From NCBI RefSeq assembly GCF_020076305.1, contig NZ_JAIQXE010000001.1, forward strand, positions 868,001 to 932,000: a stretch of 64,000 nt of DNA, given 5' to 3'. Under the pieces are notes generated by a model. It did no database searches, was not told where the DNA came from, and worked only from the letters and a program-made list of their open reading frames with translations. Each line of letters starts with the position of its first letter. Within the stretch, counting starts at the first letter, position 1. The stretch is from Flavihumibacter profundi. GTDB lineage: Bacteria; Bacteroidota; Bacteroidia; Chitinophagales; Chitinophagaceae. Shown here in pieces: positions 455 through 57,819 of the stretch. A program made the position numbers and the translations under genes.

Positions 455-488
455 AAAATGCCCCGAATTAACGGGGCATTTTTTTTAT
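455..488. terminator. Terminator downstream of dnaK
   Basis: A GC-rich stem (ATGCCCCG / CGGGGCAT) with an AATTAA-type loop has a T run on the plus strand (478-487) and a weaker TTTTA tract on the minus strand. It lies about 45 bases after the dnaK stop, beyond a heptad array, and could work in both directions. Confidence 0.7.
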
Positions 489-492
489 TCTT

Positions 493-527
493 GGTTCACG
501 GTTCACAATTTACCGTTTACTGCTTAC
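493..527 (-). repeat. Five-unit GTRAANN heptad array after dnaK
   Basis: On the minus strand the sequence reads GTAAGCA, GTAAACG, GTAAATT, GTGAACC, GTGAACC in exact 7-nt register, starting four bases after the dnaK stop codon. Units are degenerate but keep GTRAA. The same unit recurs at 14925-14975, 20540-20588 and 57792-57819. Confidence 0.75.
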
Positions 528-8063: not shown

Positions 8064-10829
8064 ATGAGAAAATTAAACTACCTTATCATGGGCCTGTTGC
8101 TGGCCGGTTCATTGCATGCACAAACTATTATTGTTAGCGGCCAGGTTGGCGATACGTCTGAAAGGAAGCCCCTCTTCAATGCAATTGTTTCAATATTAAC
8201 CAGGGATTCTATACTGCTAAAATATACAAGGACTGATGCTTCCGGCCACTTCCAGCTAACTGTTAATACTACCAAGCCCTTACTGCTAATGGTTTCCTAC
8301 CCGAAATTTGCTGATTTCCTCGATGAAATAAAACCTGATGGGAGCAGTTTGGATGTAGGTAAAATTAACCTTATTAAGAAATCGGTCCTGCTGGAAGAAG
8401 TAATTGTTTCCCAAAAAATCGGGGCGATAAGAATGCGTGGAGATACGCTGGAATTCAAGGCCGATAGCTTTGCAGTCCGGCAAGGCGCCAATGTTGAGGA
8501 ATTACTGAAGAAATTACCCGGATTGCAGGTTAATAAAAAAGGAGAAATCACCGCCCAGGGCGAAAAAGTCCAGAAGGTACTGGTAGATGGGGAAGAGTTT
8601 TTCAGTGATGACCCTGCCGTGGTTACGCAAAATTTACGGGCGGATGCCATAGATAAAGTGCAGGTATTTGATAAGAAAAGCGACCAGGCGGCATTTACAG
8701 GGGTCGATGATGGCGAAAAACAGAAAACTATTAACCTGCAGATGAAGGAAGACCGTAAGAAAGGCTATTTTGGCAAAGCTAAAATTGCTGGCGGATTACC
8801 TGGATATTTTGAGAATGAAGCCATGGCCAACCTGTTCAAGGGCAAACGAAAAATTGCAGCCTATGGCACAATGGCAAATACTGGTAAAGCCGGGCTGGAC
8901 TGGTCTGATAACAACAAATTCAGTGGAGGTGATAATGTGGAATTTAACGAGGAAGAAGGTTATTTCTATTCCTATAACGAAGGTGATGAGTTTAATACCT
9001 GGGGAGGGCGTTATAATGGTGAGGGTTTGCCAAAGGCCTGGACTGCAGGAGCCCACTACTCTAATAAATGGTTGGCTGACAAAAGAAACCTGAATGCCAA
9101 CTACCAATATTATAAACAGGATATTTTAAATGAAGGCACTAATATCACTCAATATATTTTGCCAGATACCCTATACTTTTCCAATCAGTTGCGAAAAACC
9201 AATACGCTTAACGACCGGCACCAGTTTAATGGCTTTTATGACGTAAAACTGGATTCATTATCCAGCCTGAAAGTAACGGCAAATGGCAGCCTGGCAAGCG
9301 CCAGGAATGAATCCCAGTTTATTACCAAATCCTTAAATGAGGACGGGCAACCGGTAAATGGCCAGTTAAGAGACCTGTTTTCAACAGGCGAAAAGCAACA
9401 ATCAAGTATATCCGCCATCTGGCGAAAGAAATTTGCCAGGAAAGGCCGTACAATTTCAATTGCCTTCGATCACAAGTACAGTAATAACCAGACGGATGGG
9501 CAATTAATGGCCATCAATAGTTATTACAACAGTGCCGGCCTTAATTTCAGGAACGATACGATAGACCAGAAAAAAGATAATTTCCAGCAAAGTAATATTT
9601 TTAACGGCAAGATTTCCTACACAGAACCTTTATCAAAGAAATGGTTTGTCGAAATAAATTACGGCTATAGAATTAACAATAGCAGCGCACTGAAAAGCTC
9701 CTATAACAAGGATCAAAATGGAAAATACCAGTCTTTGGATTCCATATACAGCAGTGATTATGCATATGATATTAATTCACAGAGTGGCGGCTTAAATTTC
9801 AGGTTTAACGGAGATAAAATTACCGCTTCCTTCGGTTCTAATTTATCCAACGCAAGCTATAAACAGACAGACCTTGAAAAGGATACAACCTACCGCTATA
9901 ATTTTGTAAACCTGTTTCCAAAAGCAAACATCCGCTTTAAAATGGGCGCCCAAAGGGGATTAAGGTTCAGTTATAACGGAAGTACCAGGCAGCCTACACT
10001 GCAGCAAATACAGCCTATTGCAGAAAACACAGACCCCTTGAATATACAGGTGGGTAATCCAAACCTTAAGCAGGAATTCAGGCATAATTTCAATGCTTTT
10101 TTCAACGATTATAAAGTGCTGACCAGCCGGAATATTTATTTGAATGGCGGAATGGACCTGGTTGAAAATGCAATCAGTGGAAATGATTTTGTTGATTCCG
10201 TAGGAAGAAGGGTTTACCAGTTTGTTAATGTAAATGGAAACATTAATTACTTCCTGTATGGTGGCTATTGGTTCCAGTTGAAGAAGCTGAAAGTTAATAT
10301 AAACTCCGGCCTGAATGCAAATGGTGGCAAGATCAATAATTTCATTAATGGAATTAAGAATACCAATACATACTATACCCTTGGTGGGAATTTAGGGGCT
10401 TACTATGATAAGGAAAAAAAGTTTTCAATGAATATCGAAACACGGCCATCATTTACCAATAGTAAATCATCTGTCCGGCCCGATATCATTACCAAATACT
10501 GGACTGTAGATAATGAGTTTTCCACAACTGTTCAGCTGCCCTATAAATTCGAAGTCAATTCTTCCTTAATGTATAACTGGCGTCAAAAAACTGATCTGTT
10601 TGGCAAGGATCGCAATATTTGGCTATGGAACGGCTGGCTGGGCAAAAAATTCTGGAAGAATGATGCCGGCGAACTTCGGTTTATCATGAACGATATATTA
10701 AACCAGAATGTTGGGTACCAGCGAAATGCTGCCAGCAATTTTGTTTCTGAAAATACCTACTTAACCTTAAAACGCTACTGGCTGCTGAGTTTTACCTGGA
10801 ACTTCAGCAAGAACCCCGGTGCAAAATAG
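8064..10829 (+). CDS. Outer-membrane beta-barrel receptor (TonB-receptor-like)
   Basis: A 921-aa outer-membrane protein. Residues 1-19 are a signal peptide (ending LHAQ), followed by a CarboxypepD_reg-like beta domain (about 25-105), a plug-like domain (LEEVIVSQKIG, GANVEELLKKLPGLQVN, VLVDGEEFFSDDPAV, about 110-230) and a long barrel ending SFTWNFSKNPGAK. Proteins of this type move or sense ligands at the outer membrane. It is not SusC: there is no SusC signature and no SusD gene nearby. A GLPGLI-family gene follows four bases after the stop, a common Bacteroidota pairing of unknown purpose. The substrate cannot be read from sequence. Confidence 0.9.
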   Translation: MRKLNYLIMGLLLAGSLHAQTIIVSGQVGDTSERKPLFNAIVSILTRDSILLKYTRTDASGHFQLTVNTTKPLLLMVSYPKFADFLDEIKPDGSSLDVGKINLIKKSVLLEEVIVSQKIGAIRMRGDTLEFKADSFAVRQGANVEELLKKLPGLQVNKKGEITAQGEKVQKVLVDGEEFFSDDPAVVTQNLRADAIDKVQVFDKKSDQAAFTGVDDGEKQKTINLQMKEDRKKGYFGKAKIAGGLPGYFENEAMANLFKGKRKIAAYGTMANTGKAGLDWSDNNKFSGGDNVEFNEEEGYFYSYNEGDEFNTWGGRYNGEGLPKAWTAGAHYSNKWLADKRNLNANYQYYKQDILNEGTNITQYILPDTLYFSNQLRKTNTLNDRHQFNGFYDVKLDSLSSLKVTANGSLASARNESQFITKSLNEDGQPVNGQLRDLFSTGEKQQSSISAIWRKKFARKGRTISIAFDHKYSNNQTDGQLMAINSYYNSAGLNFRNDTIDQKKDNFQQSNIFNGKISYTEPLSKKWFVEINYGYRINNSSALKSSYNKDQNGKYQSLDSIYSSDYAYDINSQSGGLNFRFNGDKITASFGSNLSNASYKQTDLEKDTTYRYNFVNLFPKANIRFKMGAQRGLRFSYNGSTRQPTLQQIQPIAENTDPLNIQVGNPNLKQEFRHNFNAFFNDYKVLTSRNIYLNGGMDLVENAISGNDFVDSVGRRVYQFVNVNGNINYFLYGGYWFQLKKLKVNINSGLNANGGKINNFINGIKNTNTYYTLGGNLGAYYDKEKKFSMNIETRPSFTNSKSSVRPDIITKYWTVDNEFSTTVQLPYKFEVNSSLMYNWRQKTDLFGKDRNIWLWNGWLGKKFWKNDAGELRFIMNDILNQNVGYQRNAASNFVSENTYLTLKRYWLLSFTWNFSKNPGAK

Positions 10830-10833
10830 TGCT

Positions 10834-11580
10834 ATGAAAAATATTCTGATACTTATTGCAGGTTTCTGCCTGGTTAGGCAAACCCAGGCACAGACTATTT
10901 TTATTAACAACGGTACAATTGAATATGAGCGGAAAATTAATGTTCACCGGCAGTTTGAATCAGAAAATAATGACGATAGCGAGTGGTTCAAGGATTTCCT
11001 GACCAAGCAGCCTAAGTTTCATACTTCCTATTTCCAGTTGTCCTTCAATAAAGACAAAGCAATATACCAGCCTGGCAAAGAAGCAGACGCTAAAATGGAG
11101 CCCTGGATGATTGGACCGGCTAAAGAAAATTCTGTGCTCACCGATTTCAACGGGCTTTTATTCACGAGCCGTAAAACTGTATTCGAACAAACATTTATTG
11201 TTGCTGACAGTACCAATCGCCTGCAATGGAAATTAAGTAGTGAAACCCGCACTATTGCCGGTTTTGAATGCCGGAAAGCAGTAACTGTAATTTGTGATTC
11301 CGTATATGTAGTCGCTTTTTACACAGAGGAAATCCCCGTTAGTGGTGGTCCAGAATCTTTTGGCGGATTACCGGGCATGATACTTGGATTAGCTGTACCG
11401 CGTTTATATTCAACCTGGTACGCAACAAAAGTTGAACTCAACCAGCCTCCGGCTTCAGTTTTTGCCATCAACGGTAAAGGAAAAAAAATCACAAGCCATG
11501 AACTTGCGCCAATGCTCACAAGTACGTTTAAGGATTGGGATAAACGCGGACAAAAATTCATCTGGTGGTCTATGTTATAA
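10834..11580 (+). CDS. GLPGLI family exported protein
   Basis: A 248-aa exported protein of the Bacteroidota-specific GLPGLI family (TIGR01200), named after its best-conserved motif, here GGLPGMILGL near residue 185. The N-terminus MKNILILIAGFCLVRQTQAQ is a signal peptide. I prefer the ATG at 10834 over a GTG at 10819 because it directly opens the signal peptide and lies four bases past the receptor stop codon, which implies translational coupling. The family has no known biochemical function but often accompanies outer-membrane receptors, as here. The C-terminus ends WDKRGQKFIWWSML. Confidence 0.88.
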   Translation: MKNILILIAGFCLVRQTQAQTIFINNGTIEYERKINVHRQFESENNDDSEWFKDFLTKQPKFHTSYFQLSFNKDKAIYQPGKEADAKMEPWMIGPAKENSVLTDFNGLLFTSRKTVFEQTFIVADSTNRLQWKLSSETRTIAGFECRKAVTVICDSVYVVAFYTEEIPVSGGPESFGGLPGMILGLAVPRLYSTWYATKVELNQPPASVFAINGKGKKITSHELAPMLTSTFKDWDKRGQKFIWWSML

Positions 11581-11607
11581 CTATATTTCACCCCGCCAGG
11601 GGTAGTT

Positions 11608-13452
11608 TTAGCGAAGGTTCAGGACCAGCATATTCATGGGACTTAGATGGAGGCTTTTTCCAAGCTGAAAATTTTTACCGGTCGGGATATCGCTGGCAGT
11701 TTTAAATTTGTTTAACCGTTCCCTGAATCGGGAAAGGTCAATGTCTTTTTCAGTATTATTGGTATTCATGATACACATAACAGTTTGCAACTGGTCGTAG
11801 CGGAAATAAACATAAACACCTTCTTCGGGGGCAAATTGCATCATTTTGCCTGTTTTGATGGCCGTAGAGGTTTTCCTGAATTGGGCTAAATTGCGAATGT
11901 GGTTAAAAATGGCATTTTCTTTTTGGGTGCGTCCTCCGGCTGTGAATTTATTTACCGTATCTCCTACCCAGCCTCCTTTGAAATCCAGCCTCACCCGGCC
12001 ATCAGGATTTGTAAAACCGGTCATTAGGTTTTCATCCCCGTAATACAATTGCGGCACACCACGAAATGTAAGTAACCAGGAAAGGGCTACCTTATATTTT
12101 GCTGTGTCTTCGTTTAATACTGAATAGAATCGCGGCAGGTCATGGTTACTAAGAAAAATCACTTCACGCATTGGGTTCTTATACAGGAAATCCTGTGCAG
12201 TAGTGGTATACAGTTTGTTTACACCGTCGGTCCACCCAAATGGTTTTGCCAAAGATTCCTGGATGCCATAAAACAATAGCTGGAAGTCTGTGGTAGCCGG
12301 CAAATTACTGTTAAATGACAGTTTCATTGTGTTCTCACAGAAAAAACTTTGGTTGGGCACACCATGCACCCAGGTTTCACCAAACAGGGAAATCCGGGGG
12401 TATTCCTCTAATAATGCCTTATTGCAGCGATTCATGAAAGCCAGGTCATTATAAATATAGGTATCTATCCGCCAGCCGTCGACCCTAAAGGTTTCCACGC
12501 TCCAGATGGCATTCTGGATCAGGAAATTGGCTACAAAGGGATTATTTTGGTTCAGGTCCGGCATCATAGGCGTAAACCAGCCATCAACCATTTTTTGCTT
12601 GTCTGTTTTTGCAGCATACGGATCAAAAAGAGCCTGGTCTTTATAATTGGTACCTGTATAAGTCGGCCATTCGTGCAGCCAGTCTTTCATTGGCTTGTCC
12701 TGCACAAAAAAATGGTATAAACCACAATGGTTATAGACTGCGTCCTGTATCAGTTTCATGCCTCTTTTGTGCAGGGCATTACCAAGCGCTATATAATCTT
12801 CGTTTGTACCTAACCGGGGATCAACTTTATAATGATCGGTAATCGCATAGCCATGCTCCGTCCTGTCCGGCATGTCGTTTTCCAGCACAGGGGTCATCCA
12901 AACTGTAGTTGCACCAAGATCCTGCAGGTAATCAAGATGGTTAATAATCCCTTTAATATCTCCCCCATGGCGGTTGAATATGGAATCCCGGTTCAAAGAC
13001 TGGTCCTTTAAACCTGGTATACGGTCATTGGATGGATCCCCATTGCTGAACCGGTCGGGCATCAGCAGGTATATCAGGTCTGAAGAAGTAACCCCCTGGG
13101 CGTAGGTTCTGCCCTTGCCTTCCTGTCTTACTTTCAGTAAATAATCTGATTTTACAAGTTTTGTGCCTTGTTTAAACTGTATGGCCAGCTTTCCGGGTTT
13201 TGTATTTGCCGAAATCAGCAAATCGAGGAATATGTAATTTGGATTTTCTGCTTTAGTTATTTTTTGCAGGGTAATGCCTTGGTATTTTGCAATACTGACC
13301 GTGCTTTTGCCAACATCCTTACCATGCACCATGATCTGCAACTTAGGATTCTTCATTCCGACCCACCAGTTTGTGGGATAAAATGAAAGTTCCTGGGCAA
13401 ATGTTTGGGAAAGCAAAAATATAGCGCATAAAACTGAACAGATCTGTTTCAT
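11608..13452 (-). CDS. Exported GH13 alpha-amylase, neopullulanase/cyclomaltodextrinase type
   Basis: Hydrolyses alpha-1,4-glucans or maltodextrins outside the inner membrane. At 614 aa it has a signal peptide (residues 1-19, ending TFAQ), an N-terminal beta domain of the Bacteroidota cyclomaltodextrinase type (about 22-108), and a GH13 barrel. Catalytic residues are visible as WRIDTYIY (nucleophile Asp330), LFGETWVHG (acid/base Glu359) and LSNHDLPRF (Asp438). This resembles SusA-type neopullulanases, but no SusCD genes are adjacent. It begins nine bases after the stop of the upstream MFS importer gene, so importer and amylase form an operon: degrade, then import. Confidence 0.92.
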   Translation of the reverse strand: MKQICSVLCAIFLLSQTFAQELSFYPTNWWVGMKNPKLQIMVHGKDVGKSTVSIAKYQGITLQKITKAENPNYIFLDLLISANTKPGKLAIQFKQGTKLVKSDYLLKVRQEGKGRTYAQGVTSSDLIYLLMPDRFSNGDPSNDRIPGLKDQSLNRDSIFNRHGGDIKGIINHLDYLQDLGATTVWMTPVLENDMPDRTEHGYAITDHYKVDPRLGTNEDYIALGNALHKRGMKLIQDAVYNHCGLYHFFVQDKPMKDWLHEWPTYTGTNYKDQALFDPYAAKTDKQKMVDGWFTPMMPDLNQNNPFVANFLIQNAIWSVETFRVDGWRIDTYIYNDLAFMNRCNKALLEEYPRISLFGETWVHGVPNQSFFCENTMKLSFNSNLPATTDFQLLFYGIQESLAKPFGWTDGVNKLYTTTAQDFLYKNPMREVIFLSNHDLPRFYSVLNEDTAKYKVALSWLLTFRGVPQLYYGDENLMTGFTNPDGRVRLDFKGGWVGDTVNKFTAGGRTQKENAIFNHIRNLAQFRKTSTAIKTGKMMQFAPEEGVYVYFRYDQLQTVMCIMNTNNTEKDIDLSRFRERLNKFKTASDIPTGKNFQLGKSLHLSPMNMLVLNLR

Positions 13453-13461
13453 CCCTTTTTA

Positions 13462-14868
13462 TTATCGGGTTACATTGATAAGTTTTTCCTGTTTGATTTT
13501 AACCCAGCCTTCATCATATACAAACAGGACACTTACTGCGGCGCATAACATGAAAAATCCTGCTAAGACAATGGCATAAACTGGTTCTCCATTGTAAATA
13601 TGTTTAACAATCCAGCCTCCAAATACACCGTTAACTATTTGTGGAAGGGTTATAAAAAAGTTGAAAATCCCCATATAAATCCCCAGTTTACCCGGAGGAA
13701 TAGAACTTGATAAAATAACATAGGGCATTGCAAGAATGCTTGCCCAGGCAAGGCCAACACCAACCATTGAAAATTTCAGCATGGAAGGGTCTTTAATAAA
13801 AAAAATGGAGATCAGTCCGATTCCGCCTGCTATTAAGGAGAAAGCATGCGTTAATTTCCTGCCGAAAGTCCGGGCTATAACTGGCAGGAATAATGCATAA
13901 ACCATTGCGATGAAATTATAGACACCAAAGGCGGAGCTCACTTTGTTTCCTGCTTCGTTATATTCTATTGATTTGGAATAATCCCCGCTTAAACCATAAA
14001 CGTGTGTTGCAACTGCATCTGTTGTAAATACCCACATACTAAAAAGTGCAAACCAGCTGAAAAATTGTACCAGCCCCAACTGCCTCATTGTTCTTGGCAT
14101 GTTTTTGAAATCCTTAAGTATCTCGGTAAGGCCGGCTTTTTCCTGGCTCCTGTCCTGTTTGCCATGATATAGTTCATATTCAGCTGGTGTATATTCATTT
14201 GAAAAGAAAATAGTTACCAAAATCGCTGATATGAAAACAGCTGCACCTATATAAAATGAATATTTGATATTATCAGCCACACCATTTGGACCGGCTTCCA
14301 TACTAAATCCAATTTGCGACAGCAATTCGGGGAGTATTGAACCTGCTACAGCCCCTAAGCCGATTAGAAATGTCTGGATACTGAATCCTAATGTACGCTG
14401 GCTATCGGAAAGATTATCTGCGACCAAAGCCCTGAAAGGTTCCATCGCGATATTAAATGAGGCATCCATTACCATTACCATTCCTGCCCCTATCCATAGT
14501 ACAGGTATTATACCAGCCAAAGTTCCGGAGTTTGGCAGGAATATAAGAGCAAGCGAGGAAAGTAAGGCCCCGGTTAAAAAATATGGTTTCCTTCTTCCCA
14601 TACGATTCCAGGTGCGGTCACTATAATGGCCAATGATCGGTTGGACAATCATGCCGACCAGAGGTGCTACAAGCCAGAACATTGGCAGGTTTTCAACATC
14701 AGCCCCGAATGAACGCAGGATCCTGCTTGTATTTCCATTTTGCAGTGCAAAACCAAACTGGATTCCCAGGAATCCGAAACTCATTGTAAAAATCTGGGCA
14801 ATAGTGAGTTTTGGCTTTGGGATTAAACCAGTCTTGTTGGAAGCGCCTGGAGACGGTGTTGCGGCCAT
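13462..14868 (-). CDS. MFS sugar transporter, SLC45/GPH-like (probable maltose/maltodextrin importer)
   Basis: A 468-aa major-facilitator protein with about 12 transmembrane helices. The loop SDRTWNRMGRRKPYFLTGA (about residues 83-101) is the signature of the SLC45/GPH branch, whose bacterial members in alpha-glucan loci carry maltose or related disaccharides. The gene is first in an operon with the GH13 amylase, and glgC lies just upstream on the same strand, which supports a maltose or maltodextrin substrate (inference). The start gives a short Pro/Ser-rich cytoplasmic tail (MAATPSPGASNK) before helix 1. Upstream is a heptad array that ends the glgC transcript. Confidence 0.85.
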   Translation of the reverse strand: MAATPSPGASNKTGLIPKPKLTIAQIFTMSFGFLGIQFGFALQNGNTSRILRSFGADVENLPMFWLVAPLVGMIVQPIIGHYSDRTWNRMGRRKPYFLTGALLSSLALIFLPNSGTLAGIIPVLWIGAGMVMVMDASFNIAMEPFRALVADNLSDSQRTLGFSIQTFLIGLGAVAGSILPELLSQIGFSMEAGPNGVADNIKYSFYIGAAVFISAILVTIFFSNEYTPAEYELYHGKQDRSQEKAGLTEILKDFKNMPRTMRQLGLVQFFSWFALFSMWVFTTDAVATHVYGLSGDYSKSIEYNEAGNKVSSAFGVYNFIAMVYALFLPVIARTFGRKLTHAFSLIAGGIGLISIFFIKDPSMLKFSMVGVGLAWASILAMPYVILSSSIPPGKLGIYMGIFNFFITLPQIVNGVFGGWIVKHIYNGEPVYAIVLAGFFMLCAAVSVLFVYDEGWVKIKQEKLINVTR

Positions 14869-14917
14869 AACAATCGTTGTTAAATGTGTATGAAAGACAC
14901 AGTATCTAAATTAAGGT

Positions 14918-14975
14918 AAAAAAAGTGAAAGGTGAAAGGGAAAAAATCTTTCACCTTTCACCTTTCACCTTTCAC
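14918..14975 (-). terminator. glgC terminator built from GTGAAAG heptads
   Basis: Read on the minus strand, four GTGAAAG units (14948-14975) are followed by ATTTTTTCC and then the complementary units CTTTCACCTTTCAC (14925-14938), giving a perfect 14-bp stem and a run of seven T. It lies 20 bases after the glgC stop and before the MFS gene. The same bases form a heptad repeat array on both strands. Confidence 0.8.
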
Positions 14976-14994
14976 TAACTGAAATTACTGTTGT

Positions 14995-16272
14995 TTAAAT
15001 AACAAACCCATTCGGTATGATAGCCCCTTTTTTTACAACCACAATTCCATCTTTTACAGTATAAAGGGCATGGTCGCAGTTTTCAAGGTGTGGCCCGCCA
15101 TTAATCCGTACATCATCACCTATGCGAACATTCTTATCCACTATGGCATTCTTAATATAGCAGCGGTCGCCAATTCCCAGTACCGGATGTCCTTGTGCCT
15201 TTGAAGAATTGATTTCAGATATGGTTTCAAAATAATCATTTCCCATCAGGTAACAGCTTACCACTGTGGTTCCGTGGCCAATCCTTGAACGTATTCCAAC
15301 TACTGTATTTTCAACCCGTGAAGCGTTTATAATAGAACCTTCCGCGATTACCGTTCTTTCCAGGGTAGAACCGCTGATTTTAGCAGGCGGAAGCATACGG
15401 GCCCTGGTATAAATGGCATTATTGTTATCGAACAGGTTAAAATCAGGAATATCTTCGGTCAAGCCAAGATTCGCTTCGAAAAAGGAATAGATATTTCCAA
15501 TATCAGTCCAGTATCCGTCATATTGGTAACTGCAAACTTTGTATTTATCAATAGATTCCGGGATGATTTCCTTACCGAAATCAGTGGCATCCTTTTTTTC
15601 ATTCTCCAGGAGGTCAAAAAGGAGTTTCCGGTTAAAAATATAAATACCCATTGAAGCCAGGTAATTCCTGCCATGCGCTTTCATTTCGGCTCCTGTATCA
15701 CTAACCCAGTCTGGCAACAATTCCTTTTTGGGCTTTTCGATGAAAGAGGAAATAAAGCCATCTGAAGTTTTCAGAATACCAAATTCAGGTGCTTCACGGT
15801 CTGCTACAGGTATTGTAGCGATGGAAATATCAGCACCGTTCTTTTTATGGTTATCCAGCATGGCACTAAAATCCATCTGGTACAACTGGTCCCCGGAAAG
15901 GATCAGTACATATTCACTGTCGAATGGGCCAATGTGGCGCAGGCTCTGGCGAACAGCATCGGCTGTACCCTGGAACCAGGTAGGATTGTCGGGTGTTTGT
16001 TCAGCGGCGAGGATATCTACAAAAGCCGAACTGAACGCACTAAAATGGTATGTGTTCTTGATATGCCTGTTCAGGGATGCAGAGTTAAACTGCGTAAGCA
16101 CAAACATCCTGCTTATGTTCGAATTGATACAGTTCGAAATGGGAATATCCACCAACCGGTATTTACCTGCAATAGGGACTGCTGGTTTGCTTCTGCTCGC
16201 AGTAAGGGGGTACAAACGGGTGCCTGCGCCACCTCCAAGAATTACGGCAAGAATCTCTTTACTTATTGACAT
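14995..16272 (-). CDS. glgC: Glucose-1-phosphate adenylyltransferase
   Basis: Makes ADP-glucose from ATP and glucose-1-phosphate, the committed step of glycogen synthesis. At 425 aa it has the pyrophosphorylase loop ILGGGAGTRLYPLT (residues 11-24), the substrate and allosteric region KPAVPIAGKYRLVDIPISN (29-47), LSGDQLYQMDF (about 129-139), FIEKPK near 180, and a C-terminal left-handed beta-helix ending KKGAIIPNGFVI. It starts 26 bases after the glgA stop, so glgA-glgC is an operon with glgA first. The transcript ends in the heptad terminator. Confidence 0.97.
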   Translation of the reverse strand: MSISKEILAVILGGGAGTRLYPLTASRSKPAVPIAGKYRLVDIPISNCINSNISRMFVLTQFNSASLNRHIKNTYHFSAFSSAFVDILAAEQTPDNPTWFQGTADAVRQSLRHIGPFDSEYVLILSGDQLYQMDFSAMLDNHKKNGADISIATIPVADREAPEFGILKTSDGFISSFIEKPKKELLPDWVSDTGAEMKAHGRNYLASMGIYIFNRKLLFDLLENEKKDATDFGKEIIPESIDKYKVCSYQYDGYWTDIGNIYSFFEANLGLTEDIPDFNLFDNNNAIYTRARMLPPAKISGSTLERTVIAEGSIINASRVENTVVGIRSRIGHGTTVVSCYLMGNDYFETISEINSSKAQGHPVLGIGDRCYIKNAIVDKNVRIGDDVRINGGPHLENCDHALYTVKDGIVVVKKGAIIPNGFVI

Positions 16273-16298
16273 ATATGTATGTTGGATTTATTGGTTTA

Positions 16299-17717
16299 TT
16301 AAGGTAATAAAGATTTGTACACATCTATGTATTGTTGGGCACTATTATCCCAACTAAAATCTTTTTGCATCAGTTGCTTCCTGATGGCATTGAAATAGAC
16401 TTTGTCTTCGTATAATTCAGTACCCCTGAATACAGCATTGGTGATATCCCCAACGCTGGCCTGGTTAAAGCAAATGCCATATCCGCCGGGTTCGCCAATA
16501 TCCTTAACCGTATCCCGCAGGCCACCTGTTCTGCGTACAACAGGAACAGTGCCATAACGCATCGCATACATCTGGTTAAGCCCGCAGGGCTCCACACGGC
16601 TGGGCATTAGCAAAAAATCTGCCCCGGCATACATTTTATGGCTTAATTTTTCATTGTAACCGATCCTGGCATTGTAATTCCCGGCCCAATATTCGCGCAT
16701 ATTATCCAACTCTCCTTCAATGTAAGGCTCCCCACTTCCAAGCACAAGGAAATTCATGCGTTGATTCATATAATATAATGAATCCCCTATTGCCTTCGGA
16801 AGTAGTTCGGCGGCTTTCTCACCGACAAGCCTGCCGATAAAAACAAAAAGCGGCTTTTCCTGGTTTAACCCAAATTCGGTACAAAGCGACTCTTTATTGG
16901 CCCTTTTGCCTTCAGGCAACGTGTTTATTGAAAAATGTTCGTCGAGATAGCTATCCGTTTCAGGATCCCACACTTTGGTATCAATTCCGTTTAATATACC
17001 TGCACATTTCCCTCTTTCATATTCAAAAAGGGCTTCCAGTCCATTGCTTTCTTCCCGCATTTCATGAAGGTAACTCCAACTTACAGTGGTTACCTTCCAT
17101 GCACTCCTGATGCCTGCTGCGAGTGGATTGATCATATTATTCCAGTCTAATACGCCCCATCTCCAGCCATCCCAATGCGGTATGTAATCGGACTTGCTCC
17201 AATCCAGCCAGCCCTGGTATTGTGCATTATGGATGGTCAGTACTGTCGGGATCTCCGCCAAATTCTGGTAAGGATAGCAATATTTGATCATGAAAGGAAT
17301 CAGCGCAGTATGGTGGTCATGGACATGAATGATATCCGGATGATGCTTCCAGGAAGCCACCCAGTCTACAACTGCAATTTGAAAAGAAATAAACCGTTCC
17401 GGGTCATCTTCATAGGAATAAATCCTTTCCCGATCGAGCAAGCCGTTAATATCAACCAGGTATAAATCAAAGCCAAGCGAATTCCTGGCTTCTTTGATAA
17501 TGGTATAGTCGAACCATGTATTTCCCAGGTAAGCACTGCCTTTGTGGACTACCTCCCATTTGTTGTCATACAGGAATTTGGTCCTGTACATGGGCATAAC
17601 CACTTTGGCTATATGCCCCGCCGCATTGAGGTATTTGGGCAGGGCACCAACTACATCCCCTAACCCGCCGGCTTTTGCGACCGGGTAGCATTCCGCTGAA
17701 ACATGAAGAATTTCCAT
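16299..17717 (-). CDS. glgA: Glycogen synthase (ADP-glucose type, GT5)
   Basis: Extends alpha-1,4-glucan chains with glucose from ADP-glucose. At 472 aa it shows the N-terminal ADP-binding motif KAGGLGDV (Lys15), the HDHHTALIPFM segment (about residues 133-143), and the C-terminal Rossmann region with SRVEPCGLNQMYAMRYGTVPVVRRTGG. The start MEILHVSAECYPVAKAGG is canonical. It is the first gene of the glgA-glgC operon. A weak -7-like TATATTGA lies about 20 bases upstream on the minus strand. It is divergent from the FHS importer gene at 17914. Confidence 0.97.
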   Translation of the reverse strand: MEILHVSAECYPVAKAGGLGDVVGALPKYLNAAGHIAKVVMPMYRTKFLYDNKWEVVHKGSAYLGNTWFDYTIIKEARNSLGFDLYLVDINGLLDRERIYSYEDDPERFISFQIAVVDWVASWKHHPDIIHVHDHHTALIPFMIKYCYPYQNLAEIPTVLTIHNAQYQGWLDWSKSDYIPHWDGWRWGVLDWNNMINPLAAGIRSAWKVTTVSWSYLHEMREESNGLEALFEYERGKCAGILNGIDTKVWDPETDSYLDEHFSINTLPEGKRANKESLCTEFGLNQEKPLFVFIGRLVGEKAAELLPKAIGDSLYYMNQRMNFLVLGSGEPYIEGELDNMREYWAGNYNARIGYNEKLSHKMYAGADFLLMPSRVEPCGLNQMYAMRYGTVPVVRRTGGLRDTVKDIGEPGGYGICFNQASVGDITNAVFRGTELYEDKVYFNAIRKQLMQKDFSWDNSAQQYIDVYKSLLP

Positions 17718-17913
17718 AGTTATAATTGCAATTCAATATAGCAAGAAAAAGCCGAGACAAGTATTACCCGTTAAAAAATTTCAGACAAATAAAATTCCTT
17801 CCTATTTTCACCAACTCGGGAAAGTTCATCAATGGTCGGGGAAGGCTGGTCAGCAATAGCAGCGCCTTTAATTTATCTGAGGTTTTCCGGGTAACTAAAA
17901 CTTAAGATTGCTT

Positions 17914-19524
17914 ATGTCGCAAACTAAACAACCTACCAACACAGGTGCGCTAACTACACTTGTTATGGTGTTCTTTTTCTGGGGATTTATTGCTGCCTCG
18001 AACAGCATTTTCATTCCATTTTGTAAAACACATTTTGGCCTGAACCAGTTTCAGAGCCAATTGATTGGTTCAGCTTTCTATGGGGCTTATTTTATTGGAT
18101 CCCTGGCACTTTTCCTGGTATCTAACCTTCTGGGATATGATATTCTTAATAAAATCGGTTATAAGAAAGGAATCATTTATGGCTTATGGATATCTGTGGT
18201 TGGTGCCTTACTTATAATTCCTTCGGCTAATGCAAACTCTTTCTGGGCCATTCTATTTTCCTTTTTTGTAGTGGCGCTTGGGTTTTCCCTGCAACAAACA
18301 GCCGCCCAGCCTTTTGCCATTTCCCTGGGTGACCCTTCTACAGGATCCCACCGGTTGAACCTGGCTGGTGGTATCAATTCACTCGGCACCACACTAGGTC
18401 CCATTATCGTGAGCCTTTTCCTTTTTGGATCCGTTGGTGGTGAACATAAGGAAGTAACGGTTACCAATGTCAATAACCTTTATATCATCGTAGCAGCAGT
18501 TTTTGCTGCCGTTGCCTTGTTCTTCACTTTTTCCAAACTGCCGGAAGGTAAAAACACTGAAAAATTTGAACAGGCTAATAAAGCAGCGATTTCATTGGGC
18601 ACAATGACAGGAATCATTGCTGCTATCATACTGATTGGACAAATTACTGATCTCAGTAAACTGCCGCTGCTGATAATGACACTGGTAGCTGTCGTTGGCG
18701 TTCTTTTCTGGTCAAATAATTCAGCTACCCGTAACAGCGAAGGTTGGGGAGCGATGCGCTACCAGCAATTGATTTTCGGTATGATTGGGATTTTTGTATA
18801 CGTTGGTGCAGAAGTGACTATCGATAATAATTTTGGGGCCCTGCTGAAATCCCCCGGGTACCTTACTGATGCCGGGTTAGATGAAAGCAAGATCTCACAG
18901 TATATTTCGCTTTATTGGGGTAGCCTGATGATAGGCCGCTGGACTGGCGCTATTGGCGTGTTCAACCTATCAAAAATGGGTAAACGGATCGCAACTATTC
19001 TGGTTCCTTTTGTTGCTTTTGCTATTATTTTACTGGTGAACCGGGCATATGGTAACGATGTAAGTGATTTGTATGGATATGCTATTGTTGTGGTGATTGG
19101 AATTCTGGCATTTTTCTACGGACAGGAAAAGCCGGTTAAAACACTGCTGACTGTTTCTGTATTAGCAACCGTAGCAATGTTGACTGGTGTTTTTACCCAT
19201 GGAATTGTATCTGTTTATGCCTTCATGGCGGGTGGCCTTTGCTGTTCTGTAATGTGGCCAAGTATATTCTCGCTCAGTGTAGCCGGACTCGGGAAATACA
19301 CCAGCCAGGGATCTGCTTTTCTGATTATGATGATTTTGGGTGGAGCAATTATTCCACCACTTCAGGGAACCCTGGGAGATATGAAAGAAACTATCGGTTT
19401 CCATAATTCGTACCTTCTCGCGGCAGCATGTTTTGCTTTCCTGGCTTACCTTGCGCTGAAGCTGAGGAGTGTATTGAAACACCAGGGATTAGACTTTGAC
19501 AGCCAGGTTGGCGGGGGACATTAA
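17914..19524 (+). CDS. FHS-family MFS sugar importer (glucose/galactose/fucose type)
   Basis: A 536-aa major-facilitator protein with at least 12 helices. The N-terminal half (MVFFFWGFIAASNSIFIPFC, QTAAQPFAISLGDPST, GGINSLGTTLGPII) is typical of the FHS group including FucP and the glucose/galactose transporter GluP. It imports a hexose by proton symport (family knowledge). I chose the ATG at 17914 (MSQTKQ) rather than the TTG two codons upstream. A ROK sugar kinase starts 19 bases after its stop, which suggests a glucose import and phosphorylation pair. The insertion of extra helices in the middle (about residues 220-290) makes it longer than FucP. Confidence 0.87.
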   Translation: MSQTKQPTNTGALTTLVMVFFFWGFIAASNSIFIPFCKTHFGLNQFQSQLIGSAFYGAYFIGSLALFLVSNLLGYDILNKIGYKKGIIYGLWISVVGALLIIPSANANSFWAILFSFFVVALGFSLQQTAAQPFAISLGDPSTGSHRLNLAGGINSLGTTLGPIIVSLFLFGSVGGEHKEVTVTNVNNLYIIVAAVFAAVALFFTFSKLPEGKNTEKFEQANKAAISLGTMTGIIAAIILIGQITDLSKLPLLIMTLVAVVGVLFWSNNSATRNSEGWGAMRYQQLIFGMIGIFVYVGAEVTIDNNFGALLKSPGYLTDAGLDESKISQYISLYWGSLMIGRWTGAIGVFNLSKMGKRIATILVPFVAFAIILLVNRAYGNDVSDLYGYAIVVVIGILAFFYGQEKPVKTLLTVSVLATVAMLTGVFTHGIVSVYAFMAGGLCCSVMWPSIFSLSVAGLGKYTSQGSAFLIMMILGGAIIPPLQGTLGDMKETIGFHNSYLLAAACFAFLAYLALKLRSVLKHQGLDFDSQVGGGH

Positions 19525-19543
19525 AATTTTATTTAGAAATATC

Positions 19544-20533
19544 ATGACCAAAACATCGCTCGAATATGCAATTGGTGTCGACATCGGGGGCACCAATACA
19601 AAATGCGGAATTGTTAACCGCCGTGGAGAAGTGTTACAATATGAACAGCTTTCCACCCCTGAATACGAAACTCCCCAGGCATTTGTAGATGCCCTTTGTG
19701 TGCGCCTGAACCTTATGCTGGATAAGGTTGGTGGCTCTGAATATATTAAAGGGATTGGCATCGGCGCACCAAACGGTAATTATTATACGGGCACCATTGA
19801 ATATGCACCAAACCTCAGATGGGAAGGTGTCGTTCCGCTGGCTGATATGGTTTCTGAAAAGATGGGATTGCCTACTGCCCTTACCAACGACGCGAATGCA
19901 GCTGCTGTTGGTGAAATGCAATACGGTGCTGCAAAAGGAATGCGTGATTTCATTACCATTACGCTTGGTACCGGTGTAGGAAGTGGTATTGTTGCCAATG
20001 GACAATTGATTTACGGACACGATGGATTTGCAGGGGAATTGGGTCATACTATTATTCGTCCGGGCGGAAGGCCACACTGGTCAACGAAACTTGTAGGCTC
20101 GCTGGAAGCCTATGCTTCAGCGACCGGGGTTGTAATTACTGCAAAAGAAATGCTTGCCAAGAACCCGGAAAAAGAAAGTCTCTTAAGAAAATACAACCTT
20201 GAAGAATTAACCAGCAAACATGTTTTTGATTGCGCTATGCTGGGAGATGAAATTTCCCGTGAGGTATACCGGTTTACCGGGCAGATTCTCGGTGAATCAC
20301 TGGCTAATTTTGTAATGTTCTCTTCGCCGGAAGCAATTATTTTATTTGGTGGATTGATCAAAGCAGGCAAACTTATTTTTGATCCCACTATTGAACATAT
20401 GGAGAAAAATTTATTGCCTATTTTCCAGAATAAAGTGAAAGTGATAAAAAGCGATTTGCATGAAGCAGATGCAGCTATCCTGGGCGCCAGCGCATTAGTT
20501 TGGGAAATGAAGCAGAGTCACGCTTCATTGTAG
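19544..20533 (+). CDS. ROK family sugar kinase (probable glucokinase), zinc motif missing
   Basis: A 329-aa ROK kinase that probably phosphorylates glucose entering through the adjacent FHS importer. It shows the phosphate-binding DIGGTNTK (residues 13-20), LTNDANAAAVGE (about 108-119), TLGTGVGSGIV (about 140-150) and the ExGH motif GELGHTII. After this, ROK proteins normally have a zinc-binding CxCGxxGCxE segment; here the corresponding stretch is RPGGRPHWSTKLVGSLEAYA with no cysteine, although the following EAYASATG is conserved. The start is the ATG at 19544, 19 bases after the importer stop; an upstream in-frame extension into the importer gene is not needed. Confidence 0.88.
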   Translation: MTKTSLEYAIGVDIGGTNTKCGIVNRRGEVLQYEQLSTPEYETPQAFVDALCVRLNLMLDKVGGSEYIKGIGIGAPNGNYYTGTIEYAPNLRWEGVVPLADMVSEKMGLPTALTNDANAAAVGEMQYGAAKGMRDFITITLGTGVGSGIVANGQLIYGHDGFAGELGHTIIRPGGRPHWSTKLVGSLEAYASATGVVITAKEMLAKNPEKESLLRKYNLEELTSKHVFDCAMLGDEISREVYRFTGQILGESLANFVMFSSPEAIILFGGLIKAGKLIFDPTIEHMEKNLLPIFQNKVKVIKSDLHEADAAILGASALVWEMKQSHASL

Positions 20534-20539
20534 TTATTG

Positions 20540-20594
20540 GTAAATAGTGAATGGTGAATGGAATATCCAATTGCCATTCACTATTCACTTTTTT
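20540..20594 (+). terminator. Terminator of the ROK kinase gene, made of GTGAAT heptads and overlapping lipA
   Basis: On the plus strand GTAAATA, GTGAATG, GTGAATG (20540-20560) are followed by the inverted units CATTCAC, TATTCAC (20575-20588). AATAGTGAATGG pairs with CCATTCACTATT over 12 bp, and a T run follows at 20589-20594. The last part lies inside the lipA 3' end, whose final codons and stop are written by the inverted heptads. Confidence 0.75.
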
Positions 20595-21507
20595 CATTTT
20601 GCCATTTATTCTTCCCGTAACCGGCAATTACATGTTTTTCTGAATGATAGGAAGACCTTACCAGGGGGCCGCTTTCTACATAATCCAGTCCCAGGTTATA
20701 ACCGATTTCCCGGTATTCAGCAAATTCATCTGGATGCACAAATCGGTCAACCGGCAGGTGTTTACGGGTTGGTTGCAGGTACTGACCAATTGTCACTACA
20801 TCTACCCCATTATCGCGCAGGTCTGTTAACGTTCTGATTACTTCTTCCCGGGTTTCACCTAATCCAAGCATGATGCCGCTTTTTACACGCATTTTGCCTT
20901 CTTTTAGTGTACGAAGCACTTCCATGCTTCTCCAGTATTTCGCCTGTATCCTCACTTTTTTGGTAAGCCGTTCAACAGTTTCAATATTGTGGGAAACCAC
21001 CTCAGGTGCACCTTCGATGATGCGTTGTATCTGGTCTTTAAATCCCCTGAAATCAGGTATCAGGGTTTCCAGCGTTGTATCCGGGTTAAGCTGCTTTACG
21101 GCCTTTATTGTATTGTACCAGATGACAGATCCGCCATCTTTTAATTCATCTCGGTCTACAGAAGTGATGACAGCATGCTTAACTTTCATGAGGTAAATGG
21201 CTTCGGCCACGCGCTGGGGCTCATCCCAATCAACTGGTTCCGGCCTGCCGGTTGCTACTGCACAAAATCCGCAACTCCGGGTACAAACATTGCCCAGTAT
21301 CATAAAAGTGGCCGTGCCGGCACCCCAGCATTCGCCCATATTTGGACAATTACCGCTTTCACAAATGGTGTGCAGTTTATTGGTATCTACCAGTTCCCTT
21401 ACATGTTTGTAATTTTCGCCGGTTGGCAATTTAACCCTAAGCCAATTTGGCTTCTTCACTTTGGTCGTTGCTTCCTGGAGCTTGGATACTACGGGTAATT
21501 CCTGCAT
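20581..21507 (-). CDS. lipA: Lipoyl synthase
   Basis: Radical-SAM enzyme inserting two sulfurs into protein-bound octanoyl groups to make lipoate. From the ATG at 21507 it is 308 aa. The auxiliary cluster cysteines are C49, C54 and C60 ([12 protein letters not shown]), the SAM cluster is C75-x3-C79-x2-C82 (CTRSCGFC), and the C-terminal Ser of RSSYHSE ligates the auxiliary cluster. I prefer M at 21507 (MQELPVV) to the upstream Met at 21540, since the latter would overlap the preceding gene. The last codons AAA AGT GAA TAG coincide with a heptad repeat that also forms the terminator of the convergent kinase gene. Confidence 0.96.
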
Positions 21508-21523
21508 AATTGGCAAAATTACA

Positions 21524-22330
21524 TTACTTCCGCTTACCAAAGAGCAAGCTTACATAAGCATTGAAAAAGAGGTGATTCTCTTTATTATCTACCATCTGCA
21601 GAACACTTTTACCATAGTATTCTAGGTTAACGCCGGCTTCAATGGCTGAAACCGCCTCATTGAAACGTCCGTAATCAAACCGCATGGCGGTTTTCAGGTG
21701 TGCACCCGGATTTAATTTTAATTCCCCCCAGCCTACTGTGAAACCTGAGGCCCCCAGGTAAGCATATTGGTTGAAATCTTGTATATCCGTAAACTTTTTA
21801 CGATCCCTGATTTCAGTATTTACATCTACCACATCAACATAATATGGCTTTTCAAGTCCAATTGCCAACCCTCCTGCCCAAAGCGCAGATACAGAAACCC
21901 CATTCTTATTGGATTTTCCGCCTATTAGGTATTGCTGGCCATAGCCTACTTTAAACTGGTAAAAATTAATGGCTTTCCCAAAAACATATTGATTAATATT
22001 TCCGAACAAGTCAACACTGCCAGCATCCTTATTTTCTTTGGGATGTTTTTTCTCATTGAATTCAAACTGAAGCAGCCTGGTTTTTTTGGGAGTTAAAAAC
22101 TTTCCTTTTTCATATGAAAATCCCCAGCCATCTGTATTTAACTTAAATCCAAATACCGAATGCGTATTAAATATCAATTGTCCCTCTTCCTCTATTTTAA
22201 TCATGGCATTGATCCGTTCCTTCTTCACCGTTTTCTTGTCCTTGGTTTGAGGAGTGGGTGTAGATTGGGCCCAGGTCATCGTTGCACAAATAAATCCGAT
22301 CGATAATAACAGTATTTTTTTCACGGTCAT
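21524..22330 (-). CDS. Exported conserved protein, probable outer-membrane beta-rich protein
   Basis: A 268-aa protein with a signal peptide ([22 protein letters not shown]) and a Thr/Lys-rich linker, then alternating beta-like strands ([50 protein letters not shown]) ending [16 protein letters not shown]. The aromatic C-terminus and periodic strands suggest a small outer-membrane barrel. No characterised family is recognised. The start at 22330 follows a TATTTTTG -7 element by about 30 bases. It ends 16 bases before the lipA start and probably shares its transcript. Confidence 0.7.
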
Positions 22331-22361
22331 GATTTTAGATACCAGCTGACGTAAATTTAGG

Positions 22362-22369
22362 CAAAAATA
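22362..22369 (-). promoter_or_regulatory. -7 element (TATTTTTG) for the exported protein and lipA
   Basis: Exact TAnnTTTG match on the minus strand, 31 bases upstream of the ATG at 22330. It is the only such match in the short divergent region shared with the OsmC gene. Confidence 0.55.
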
Positions 22370-22374
22370 ATAGC

Positions 22375-22779
22375 ATGACAGCATCTGTAGTTTATGAAGG
22401 ACAACTTCACTGTAAGGCAACCCATATCCAAAGTGGTACCACTATTGAAACTGATGCACCTACTGATAACCGGGGCAAGGGAGAAAGCTTCTCACCAACG
22501 GATATGGTTTGTGTAGCGCTTGGAACCTGTGCCATTACTACAATGGGTATTAAAGCCATGGACATGGATATTCAGCTTGATGGCGCTACCCTCGACATTC
22601 AGAAACACATGGTCAGCGACCCAAGGAGAATTGGGAAAATTGATGTTGTAATCCGCTTCCCCAAAACGTTAAACCTAAGTGAAAAAGACCGGACCATCCT
22701 TGAAAGGATTGGTAACAATTGCCCGGTCGTTAAAAGCCTTTCTCCGGAAGTTGCGGTTAACCTGGTTTACGAATGGTAA
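22375..22779 (+). CDS. OsmC/Ohr family protein
   Basis: A 134-aa OsmC-like protein. This family reduces organic or lipid hydroperoxides with two cysteines, seen here as Cys52 (ALGTCAIT) and Cys116 (NNCPVVKS). The ERIGNNCPV segment and the start MTASVVYEGQLHC are usual for the YhfA-like branch of the family, so a specific Ohr activity is not certain. The gene is divergent from the lipA transcript and convergent with the DUF2851 gene. A hairpin at 22784-22816 separates the two. Confidence 0.92.
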   Translation: MTASVVYEGQLHCKATHIQSGTTIETDAPTDNRGKGESFSPTDMVCVALGTCAITTMGIKAMDMDIQLDGATLDIQKHMVSDPRRIGKIDVVIRFPKTLNLSEKDRTILERIGNNCPVVKSLSPEVAVNLVYEW

Positions 22780-22783
22780 TGTA

Positions 22784-22816
22784 TATGCCATCACCTGTTC
22801 AGCAAGTGATGGCATA
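22784..22816. terminator. 11-bp hairpin between convergent OsmC and DUF2851 genes
   Basis: TATGCCATCAC and GTGATGGCATA form a perfect 11-bp stem around an 11-nt loop. It begins five bases after the OsmC stop and includes the last codons of the DUF2851 gene. There is no T run on either strand, so an intrinsic terminator role is uncertain. Confidence 0.45.
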
Positions 22817-24077: not shown

Positions 24078-24105
24078 ATCCCTTCACAAGCGTTATAACA
24101 CCCTT

Positions 24106-24669
24106 TTATTGCCAGTTTGCCAAAGCCTGGACAACCCGGCTTACGGGTAATCCCATTACATTGTAAAAATCACCTTCTATTGATTTGATGCCGGTAACAC
24201 CGATCCACTCCTGGATTGCATAAGCGCCGGCTTTATCAAATGGCTGGTATTTGTCTACATAGAAAATAATTTGAGCCTGTGTTAACGGATGAAAATAGAC
24301 TGTAGTAATATCTGAAAATGCAATTTCCTGTTCACCTTTGCGTAATACTACCCCGGTTATAACACGGTGGGCTTCGCCCGACAATTCCTGAAGTATATCA
24401 ATGGCATGCTGGCGATCCGTTGGCTTGCCTATAATTTTCTGGCCTAAAACAACAATTGTATCAGCAGCGAGAATCAGGTGATTATGGCTTAATTCAGCCT
24501 GCACCACTAATGCTTTCTGCCGGGCAATGTGTATGGGGATTTCCGGAATGGGAAGATTTTCAGGATACGATTCGTCAGTTGGCCGGACAATTATATCAAA
24601 TTCCACTTCAGCCCATTCGAGTAATTGCTTTCGGCGTGGCGATTGGGAAGCCAGGACAATTCTTTCCAT
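24106..24669 (-). CDS. Maf family nucleotide pyrophosphatase
   Basis: A 187-aa house-cleaning enzyme that hydrolyses non-canonical or dTTP/UTP-type nucleotides to monophosphates. Visible motifs are the ASQSPRRK loop (residues 6-13), DESYP (34-38) and the AADTIVVLGQKIIGKP segment (about 69-84) with the catalytic Asp. I start at the ATG at 24669, which overlaps the UbiA stop codon (TAATG), indicating translational coupling; a longer start would lie inside the UbiA gene. In Bacteroidota a DUF2520, KdsC, UbiA, Maf gene order is common, and three of the four lie together here. Confidence 0.93.
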   Translation of the reverse strand: MERIVLASQSPRRKQLLEWAEVEFDIIVRPTDESYPENLPIPEIPIHIARQKALVVQAELSHNHLILAADTIVVLGQKIIGKPTDRQHAIDILQELSGEAHRVITGVVLRKGEQEIAFSDITTVYFHPLTQAQIIFYVDKYQPFDKAGAYAIQEWIGVTGIKSIEGDFYNVMGLPVSRVVQALANWQ

Positions 24670-41222: not shown

Positions 41223-41292
41223 CCTCTTTGGGTCCTCTTTGGGTCCTCGGCCCCGGAGGTCTTTCCGAGGACCCAAAGAGGACCCAAAGAGG
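41223..41292. repeat. Perfect 28-bp inverted repeat made of 11-nt tandem units
   Basis: The left arm (41223-41250) is CCTCTTTGGGT twice plus CCTCGG; the right arm (41265-41292) is its exact reverse complement, with a 14-nt centre. The flanks extend it weakly (CTACCTC / GAGGTA-type matches). The structure is much longer than a normal terminator stem and no T run follows. Confidence 0.9.
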
Positions 41293-41328
41293 AGGCAAAG
41301 AGGTGTTTTCGAGGTAAAACAGACATTC

Positions 41329-57791: not shown

Positions 57792-57819
57792 GTGAATCGT
57801 ATATCGTGAATTGTTAACC
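57792..57819 (+). repeat. Four-unit GTRAANN-like heptad array before the GlmU-like gene
   Basis: Plus-strand units in exact 7-nt register: GTGAATC, GTATATC, GTGAATT, GTTAACC. Two of four match GTRAANN fully. It lies 14 bases upstream of the GlmU-like ATG (minus gene) and shows no hairpin. Confidence 0.55.

What the first reader, a model, noticed from the sequence alone, without database searches (positions are those of the whole stretch)
14925..14975. GTRAANN heptad array that doubles as the glgC terminator
Minus strand: four GTGAAAG units, ATTTTTTCC, then the reverse-complement units and seven T. The array is both a tandem repeat in strict 7-nt register and a perfect 14-bp stem. The same GTRAANN unit appears at 493-527, 20540-20588 and 57792-57819, always at or between gene ends. 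I have an impression of similar arrays in other Bacteroidota intergenic regions, but this is unverified. A phylum-specific 3'-end element with a defined unit length would be new to me.
Basis: partly seen in the sequence, partly recalled or inferred. Interest (0 to 1): 0.75.

Follow-up and report, generated by a model that had tools for sequence, protein, structure and literature searches.

The report
Seven-letter DNA repeats at gene edges
The repeat is real and is one of many short runs of seven-letter units that hug the ends of genes in this bacterium; it belongs to a kind already described in other bacteria, but its unit letters differ from species to species and change together across the genome, which earlier explanations do not cover.

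Summary
Terminator and GTRAANN are local details: 2 of 17 arm pairs have a T run. What is conserved is the 7-nt period and the layout. Arrays sense to a gene start mostly within 25 nt of its stop, 9 of 34 supplying the stop; facing arms keep one order (28 of 28 gaps). Letters differ by species and have turned over at the same gaps in close relatives. Rehm et al. 2015 describe this layout for GGGAATC/GGGGATT heptads in Xanthomonas and Nostoc, so this is a known kind in a variant without G runs. Best reading: a fast-evolving satellite at gene edges, placed by what translation tolerates; termination at glgC is a plausible by-product.

The parts
14948..14975 (-). GTGAAAG x4, 5' arm of the hairpin in the glgC transcript
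   Evidence: sequence; TRF period 7, 4.0 copies, 100% match
14925..14938 (+). GTGAAAG x2, complementary 3' arm (read CTTTCAC x2 in the glgC transcript)
   Evidence: sequence; fold z -6.4
14918..14924 (-). run of seven T after the stem in the glgC transcript
   Evidence: sequence
14995..16272 (-). glgC, glucose-1-phosphate adenylyltransferase; 19 nt lie between its stop codon and the array
   Evidence: NCBIfam NF002772 and TIGR02091 above cut-off
13462..14868 (-). next gene downstream; weak transporter matches (sucrose/proton symporter best), all below cut-off
493..527 (-). five heptads, sense, 4 nt after the stop of dnaK (532-2433, -)
20540..20560 (+). three heptads, sense, 6 nt after the stop of a ROK-family kinase-like gene (19496-20533, +; below the ROK glucokinase cut-off)
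20575..20588 (-). two heptads, facing arm, overlapping the stop of lipA (20581-21540, -)
57792..57819 (+). four 7-nt steps (GTGAATC GTATATC GTGAATT GTTAACC), antisense, 13 nt before the start of a glmU-like gene (56591-57778, -)

Best explanation
These are gene-edge heptad satellites. Shown: tandem 7-nt units fill or border short gaps between genes; they gain and lose whole units in place; their letters turn over within a locus and are shared across loci of one genome; the purine-rich strand mostly reads outward from genes. Inferred: arrays arise and resize by slippage (possibly helped by fold-back of facing arms), and units are spread or homogenised between loci by ectopic conversion, which would give each species its own vocabulary. 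Place and strand are then filtered by translation. After a stop codon the stop-bearing strand (G-TRA-A, with stops in all three frames within about 21 nt) is harmless and can even replace the native stop; just before a start codon the strand without GTG/ATG or stops is tolerated. Facing arms can form RNA hairpins. At glgC, with a T run beside the stem, such a hairpin probably also terminates transcription; that is an occasional by-product, not the general role.
For: Period 7 in gaps (around glgC in 80 named genomes 14 runs at lag 7, 11 at the harmonic 14 and 0-4 at the other lags from 4 to 16). Gap hits 27 versus coding 0. Of 34 arrays sense to the gene they follow, 31 start within 25 nt of its stop or overlap it, and 9 supply the stop as the TGA or TAA of the first unit; of 20 arrays sense to a gene they precede, 17 lie 55 nt or more before its start. 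In convergent gaps 17 of 18 arrays are sense at their nearest 3' edge. The purine-rich strand has stops in three frames in 60 of 64 G000 arrays and 35 of 43 in relatives; the other strand has none in 54 of 64 and 23 of 43. All five heptad gaps of G004 that recur in the 100-kb block are heptad gaps in G005 too (median 96% protein identity), with different letters, while flanks align closely (a sixth lag-7 run of G004 is not shared). At one junction ten relatives with no array that I could see have gaps of -4 to 84 nt (eight of them at most 31), G000 and G013 have 85 and 88 nt with arrays and longer C-termini. Arm unit order pairs about as well as permuted order (-38.95 versus -37.05 kcal/mol; 2 of 17 pairs at 0.05 or below).
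Against: The outward rule also holds for Xanthomonas GGGAATC and Nostoc GGGGATT (PMC4692102), whose letters contain no stop codon on either strand (my reading of the letters), so translation filtering cannot be the whole cause of strand choice. By purine content 19 of 64 arrays in G000, 7 of 44 in relatives and 5 of 14 around glgC in the named genomes read inward at their nearest edge. Where both orientations share a gap the order is one-way in 28 of 28 gaps, stricter than a loose filter would give. The fixed length of 7 is not explained. Ectopic conversion was not tested directly. Recurrence of arrays at the glgC gap in several lineages could mean selection.
Confidence: 0.5

Rival explanations
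1. Selected gene-boundary element: outward heptads give all-frame translation stops, and facing arms give an RNA hairpin that insulates neighbouring genes or stabilises or terminates their mRNA.
For: Tight placement at stops and all-frame stops; strong hairpin at glgC; one-way order of facing arms in 28 of 28 gaps; arrays persist at the same gaps with new letters. Nostoc 7-bp repeats have been proposed to stabilise transcripts or terminate (PMC2670836, two passages).
Against: T runs at 2 of 17 pairs; arm order not clearly tuned for pairing; G007 has no lag-7 run in 100 kb and 0 genome hits for the three unit types tried; 26 of 60 arrays lie in gaps without a facing arm; no array seen in ten of thirteen measured genomes at one junction.
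Confidence: 0.25
2. Target sites of a heptad-reading DNA- or RNA-binding protein; the vocabulary differs by species because site and protein co-evolve.
For: Positions 1, 2, 4 and 5 are near invariant among 300 units while 6 and 7 vary (the finder itself favours GTRAA); genome-wide shared vocabularies. A binding protein was also suggested for TAACTGA heptads (PMC4679880, section 24).
Against: No candidate protein was looked for or found; mixed unit types inside one array in G004 and G005; gene classes were not tested.
Confidence: 0.1
3. Mobile palindromic element of the REP/MITE type moved by a RAYT transposase.
For: Dispersed, intergenic, inverted arms.
Against: PF01797 has no match in G000, G001, G005, G009 or G013, all array-bearing (4 of 15 genomes match, 2 above cut-off). 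Arrays stay at the same gaps and change by units.
Confidence: 0.06
4. Dedicated intrinsic terminator family built on GTRAANN.
For: glgC site: stem plus seven T.
Against: 2 of 17 pairs have a T run; arrays before start codons; other unit letters.
Confidence: 0.07

Closest known systems
GGGAATC / GGGGA(C/T)T heptameric repeats of Xanthomonas and Nostoc (Rehm et al. 2015, PMC4692102)
   Same: Tandem heptads, intergenic, most often four units (Xanthomonas), coding strand just after stops (some overlapping the stop), non-coding strand just before starts, facing inverted pairs (70 cases in Xcc; few in Nostoc), few in divergent gaps, mostly the same flanking genes in two Xanthomonas species but variable length
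   Different: Main units here (GTGAATR and others) lack the runs of G needed for G-quadruplexes; several vocabularies within one genus; stop codons in the unit
TAACTGA direct repeats of Beggiatoaceae, Cyanobacteria and five Bacteroidetes (MacGregor 2015, PMC4679880)
   Same: 7-nt tandem units, mostly intergenic, indels mostly in 7-nt steps between two close Cyanothece strains, patchy distribution
   Different: Other letters; in the BOGUAY genome mostly just before start codons in one orientation; direct repeats with one indirect case
Cyanobacterial STRR (short tandemly repeated repetitive) sequences (seen through PMC2670836 passages)
   Same: Usually 7-bp repeats that can form hairpins between genes
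   Different: Not compared letter by letter; seen here only through two passages
REP / BIME palindromes (recalled; PMC3733652 seen in a search listing only)
   Same: Dispersed intergenic palindromes
   Different: Not tandem heptads; linked to RAYT genes (recalled), which most array-bearing genomes here lack

Membership tests
Gene-edge heptameric repeats (Rehm et al. kind) | tandem units of 7 nt, intergenic | tested here: met
Gene-edge heptameric repeats (Rehm et al. kind) | coding strand close downstream of stops, non-coding strand close upstream of starts | tested here: met
   31 of 34 within 25 nt of the stop; 20 of 26 within 50 nt of the start; 17 of 20 sense-upstream arrays at 55 nt or more
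Gene-edge heptameric repeats (Rehm et al. kind) | facing inverted pairs | tested here: met
   one-way order in 17 of 17 two-orientation gaps in G000 and 11 of 11 in relatives
Gene-edge heptameric repeats (Rehm et al. kind) | most common array length four units | tested here: met
   24 of 60 arrays have four units (minimum three by design)
Gene-edge heptameric repeats (Rehm et al. kind) | G-run unit able to form G-quadruplexes | tested here: not met
   by the letters: GTGAATG/GTGAATA (181 of 300 units) have no run of three G; GGGAATG is 7 of 300. No quadruplex prediction was run
Intrinsic terminator (glgC site) | stable stem followed by a U run after the stop | tested here: met
   the fold pairs four of the seven U in a slipped register; the simple terminator scan did not list it
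Intrinsic terminator (glgC site) | RNA 3' end at the U run | not testable with these tools
   needs Term-seq
REP/RAYT element | RAYT transposase in the genome | tested here: not met
   no PF01797 match in G000
Rfam family | match above the gathering score at the array | tested here: not met
   only a tRNA at 42386-42459 in the window

The most novel reading that the evidence does not exclude
Bacteria of several phyla share a general, trans-acting heptad process that brackets genes with purine-strand-outward 7-nt units, the polarity of telomeric DNA (my comparison, from general knowledge). Each species has its own vocabulary, and a change of vocabulary spreads over dozens of loci while the sites stay fixed. 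G-quadruplexes, RAYT transposases and RVT_1-type reverse transcriptases would not be needed; the agent that counts seven and spreads the letters is unknown.
Probability: 0.12. Interest if true: 0.85.

Novelty: new variant of a known kind. Interest (0 to 1): 0.5.

Why it matters
The published Xanthomonas/Nostoc arrays drew attention through G-quadruplexes. The same layout with units that lack runs of G suggests that quadruplexes are not the shared cause. Fixed sites with switching letters in species that share about 95% protein identity make the origin of bacterial heptads testable: slippage, conversion between loci, or a trans-acting factor. The arrays also take over stop codons and go with longer gaps, so they affect C-termini and gene annotation.

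Tried and rejected
Terminator family: rejected as a general role (2 of 17 pairs with a T run). RAYT/REP: PF01797 absent from G000 and 10 other genomes of the 15. Reverse-transcriptase tailing: PF00078 has no match in G000, G001, G004, G005 or G009 (4 of 15 genomes match). Selection for exact arm pairing: the permutation test gave no clear signal. Stop codons as the only cause of strand choice: rejected because published GGGAATC/GGGGATT units have none (my reading of the letters). Rfam: no family at the arrays. The simple terminator scan of 10001-25000 did not list the glgC hairpin, and its counts were no higher than in shuffles (15 against 17.0), so it was not used. Papers: no held paper has both 'Flavihumibacter' and 'tandem repeat'; the heptad searches returned the papers cited and no report of GTRAANN arrays that I saw in the listings; only held open-access papers are covered. 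Mrazek 2007 is known here only through Rehm; Mazel 1990 and Jackman and Mulligan 1995 are recalled, not read. PMC3733652 and PMC4596501 were seen in a search listing only.

Limits: the gene calls are my own simple codon-score caller, so start positions are rough. Of the 40 stretches of 20 kb taken from G000, 25 (L060-L084) were chosen because one search listed a hit in them, so counts are not densities. Of 16 arrays that overlap a gene end by coordinates, two are doubtful (the over-extended window 20577-20616 and the weak L071:16887-16905). Single arrays in gaps between genes of one direction are mostly antisense (10 against 4). The third of three 'inner A/T tract' cases (L081, 442 nt between arms) is probably chance. 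The 100-kb samples of G012, G013 and G007 held 1 (A-rich), 1 and 0 lag-7 runs, though G012 and G013 have 68 and 129 GTRAANN hits genome-wide. At least two of the 80 named loci (L170, L172) are the same genomes as G014 and G005.

Full report
What is there. On the minus strand, after 19 nt from the stop of glgC (14995-16272; named by NCBIfam), lie four GTGAAAG units (14975-14948), a 9-nt loop, two CTTTCAC units (14938-14925) and seven T. The RNA folds at -33.1 kcal/mol, z -6.4, with four of the seven U drawn into a slipped stem.

Is it chance? The pattern of three GTRAA steps in 7-nt register occurs 66 + 82 times in the genome, the reversed control 0. In the window plus a contiguous 280-kb block not chosen for arrays there are 27 hits in gaps (with 25-bp margins), 0 in coding stretches and 0 in 200 dinucleotide shuffles of the gaps. 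Scanning the gaps of the same 344 kb for self-similarity gives 13 runs at lag 7 (1.0 in shuffles) and 0-2 at the other lags from 4 to 16, apart from lag 11 (5) and the harmonic 14 (10).

Where the arrays sit. In 864 kb of this genome (25 of its 40 extra stretches chosen because one search listed a hit in them) I placed 60 arrays against my own gene calls. Of the 34 that are sense to the gene they follow, 31 begin within 25 nt of the stop or overlap it; 16 overlap the gene end by coordinates (two doubtful), and 9 provide the stop codon as the TGA or TAA in the first unit. Arrays antisense to the gene they precede are close to its start (20 of 26 within 50 nt), whereas arrays sense to the gene they precede mostly stay away (17 of 20 at 55 nt or more). 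In convergent gaps 17 of 18 are sense at their nearest 3' edge. Where a gap has both orientations the order is purine-rich strand first, then its complement: 17 of 17 gaps here and 11 of 11 in relatives. Not every array fits: by purine content 19 of 64 in G000 and 7 of 44 in relatives read inward at their nearest edge, as do 5 of 14 around glgC in named genomes. Six of the 46 array gaps are divergent, against 119 of 488 gaps of 20 nt or more.

Not a terminator family. Of 17 arm pairs, 2 (glgC and L060) have a T run next to the outer end of an arm, and 2 (L066, L070) enclose a hairpin with A and T tracts that looks like an ordinary terminator. Pairing energy of the arms is about what permuted units give. 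Stems form because both arms use the same vocabulary.

The letters are not fixed; the seven is. G000 uses mainly GTGAATR (115 GTGAATG and 66 GTGAATA among 300 units). G004 and G009 show mainly GTGAAAR among their listed GTRAANN places (capped lists). GTSAGAY triplets number 117 in G004, 239 in G005, 59 in G006, 21 in G009 and 0 in the other 11 of 15. GTAAGAN triplets occur in 1 of 15, G001 (44), which has no GTRAANN hit. At the glgC gap itself relatives show GTGAAAR, GTGAGAC/GTCAGAC, GTAAGAG, GTTTAAG, 8-nt units or no array. G007 has 0 hits for all three unit types and no lag-7 run in 100 kb.

How they change. G004 and G005 (median protein identity 96%, 78 orthologues) share five heptad gaps in the block compared; G009 (94%) shares three of them by the score rule (77 conserved junctions were looked at, and G004 has a sixth, unshared run). 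Within these gaps flanks align closely, whole units come and go, and the unit type switches: at one gap GTGAGAY in G004 and G005 but GTGAAAR in G009; at glgC GTGAAAR in G004 and G009 but GTGAGAC/GTCAGAC in G005. At a tandem junction on contig C2 the gap is -4, -4, -4, 8, 11, 19, 21, 31, 45 and 84 nt in ten relatives where I saw no array; 85 and 88 nt with arrays of different letters in G000 and G013, where the upstream protein is longer (...NWINLTYKVE and ...NWINLTYKIEGEQ against ...NWINP or ...NWING in five others); and 77 nt with an antisense array in G001. G007's next gene was not found adjacent, and G006 gave no locus.

Mechanism. I favour a satellite that grows by slippage, shares units between loci, and is kept only where it does little harm. 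After a stop, the strand with stops in all frames is safe (60 of 64 arrays have stops in three frames on the purine-rich strand; 54 of 64 have none on the other). Before a start, the strand free of GTG and ATG is safe. Slippage and sharing are inferences; placement, strand and turnover are shown. The weak point is that the published Xanthomonas and Nostoc units carry no stops yet obey the same outward rule, so some part of the rule has another cause.

What is known. Rehm et al. 2015 (PMC4692102; passages and sections 10, 13, 16 read) report for GGGAATC and GGGGA(C/T)T heptads most of the features found here: proximity, strand rule, stop overlap, facing pairs (in Xanthomonas), a preference for four units, scarcity between divergent genes, stable sites with variable length, no known function. 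MacGregor 2015 (PMC4679880; abstract, outline and sections 11, 12, 24 read) reports TAACTGA heptads, also in five Bacteroidetes. Passages in PMC2670836 report 7-bp hairpin-forming repeats in cyanobacteria. So the finding is a variant of a known kind. New here, as far as my searches show, are units that lack G runs in the same layout, several vocabularies in one genus, concerted switching at fixed sites, and stop-codon takeover by the first unit.

Distribution. 161 of 392 Bacteroidota genomes (own included) have at least one GTRAANN triplet, most with few; in some (for example G174) the reversed control is as high, so low counts mean little. Around glgC in 80 named genomes, 10 have a lag-7 run, with many different units.

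Noticed in passing
window 41223-41303: Facing tandem arrays of an 11-nt unit (CCTCTTTGGGT and GAGGACCCAAA) form a long palindrome in a gap; the pyrimidine-rich strand comes first, opposite to the heptads. Lag 11 was the second most frequent non-harmonic lag in the 344-kb sample.
   Followed up: no
window 41330-41378: About 2.2 copies of a 22-nt unit (TCACAAGAATGAGTACAGACCG) beside the 11-nt palindrome.
   Followed up: no
L113 (G012) glgC gap; L254 (G007), after the orthologue of the L072 gene: 8-nt tandem units (GTGAATGG/GTCAATGG in G012; CACGAAGR-like with a facing arm in G007), so neighbours can use octads.
   Followed up: partly
L209:5184 and L092:12047: TTTAGGG-type heptads, the letters of plant telomere repeats (recalled), in gaps of Bacteroidota.
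   Followed up: no
window 458-487: Hairpin ATGCCCCG, loop AATTAA, CGGGGCAT, then a T run on the + strand, next to the dnaK heptad array: an ordinary-looking terminator and heptads side by side.
   Followed up: no
G050:C10:41197-41320 and G050:C23:130-246: Much longer GTGAAGR arrays (about 17-18 units) in another family of the order; some lie near contig ends, so assembly breaks may hide longer ones.
   Followed up: no
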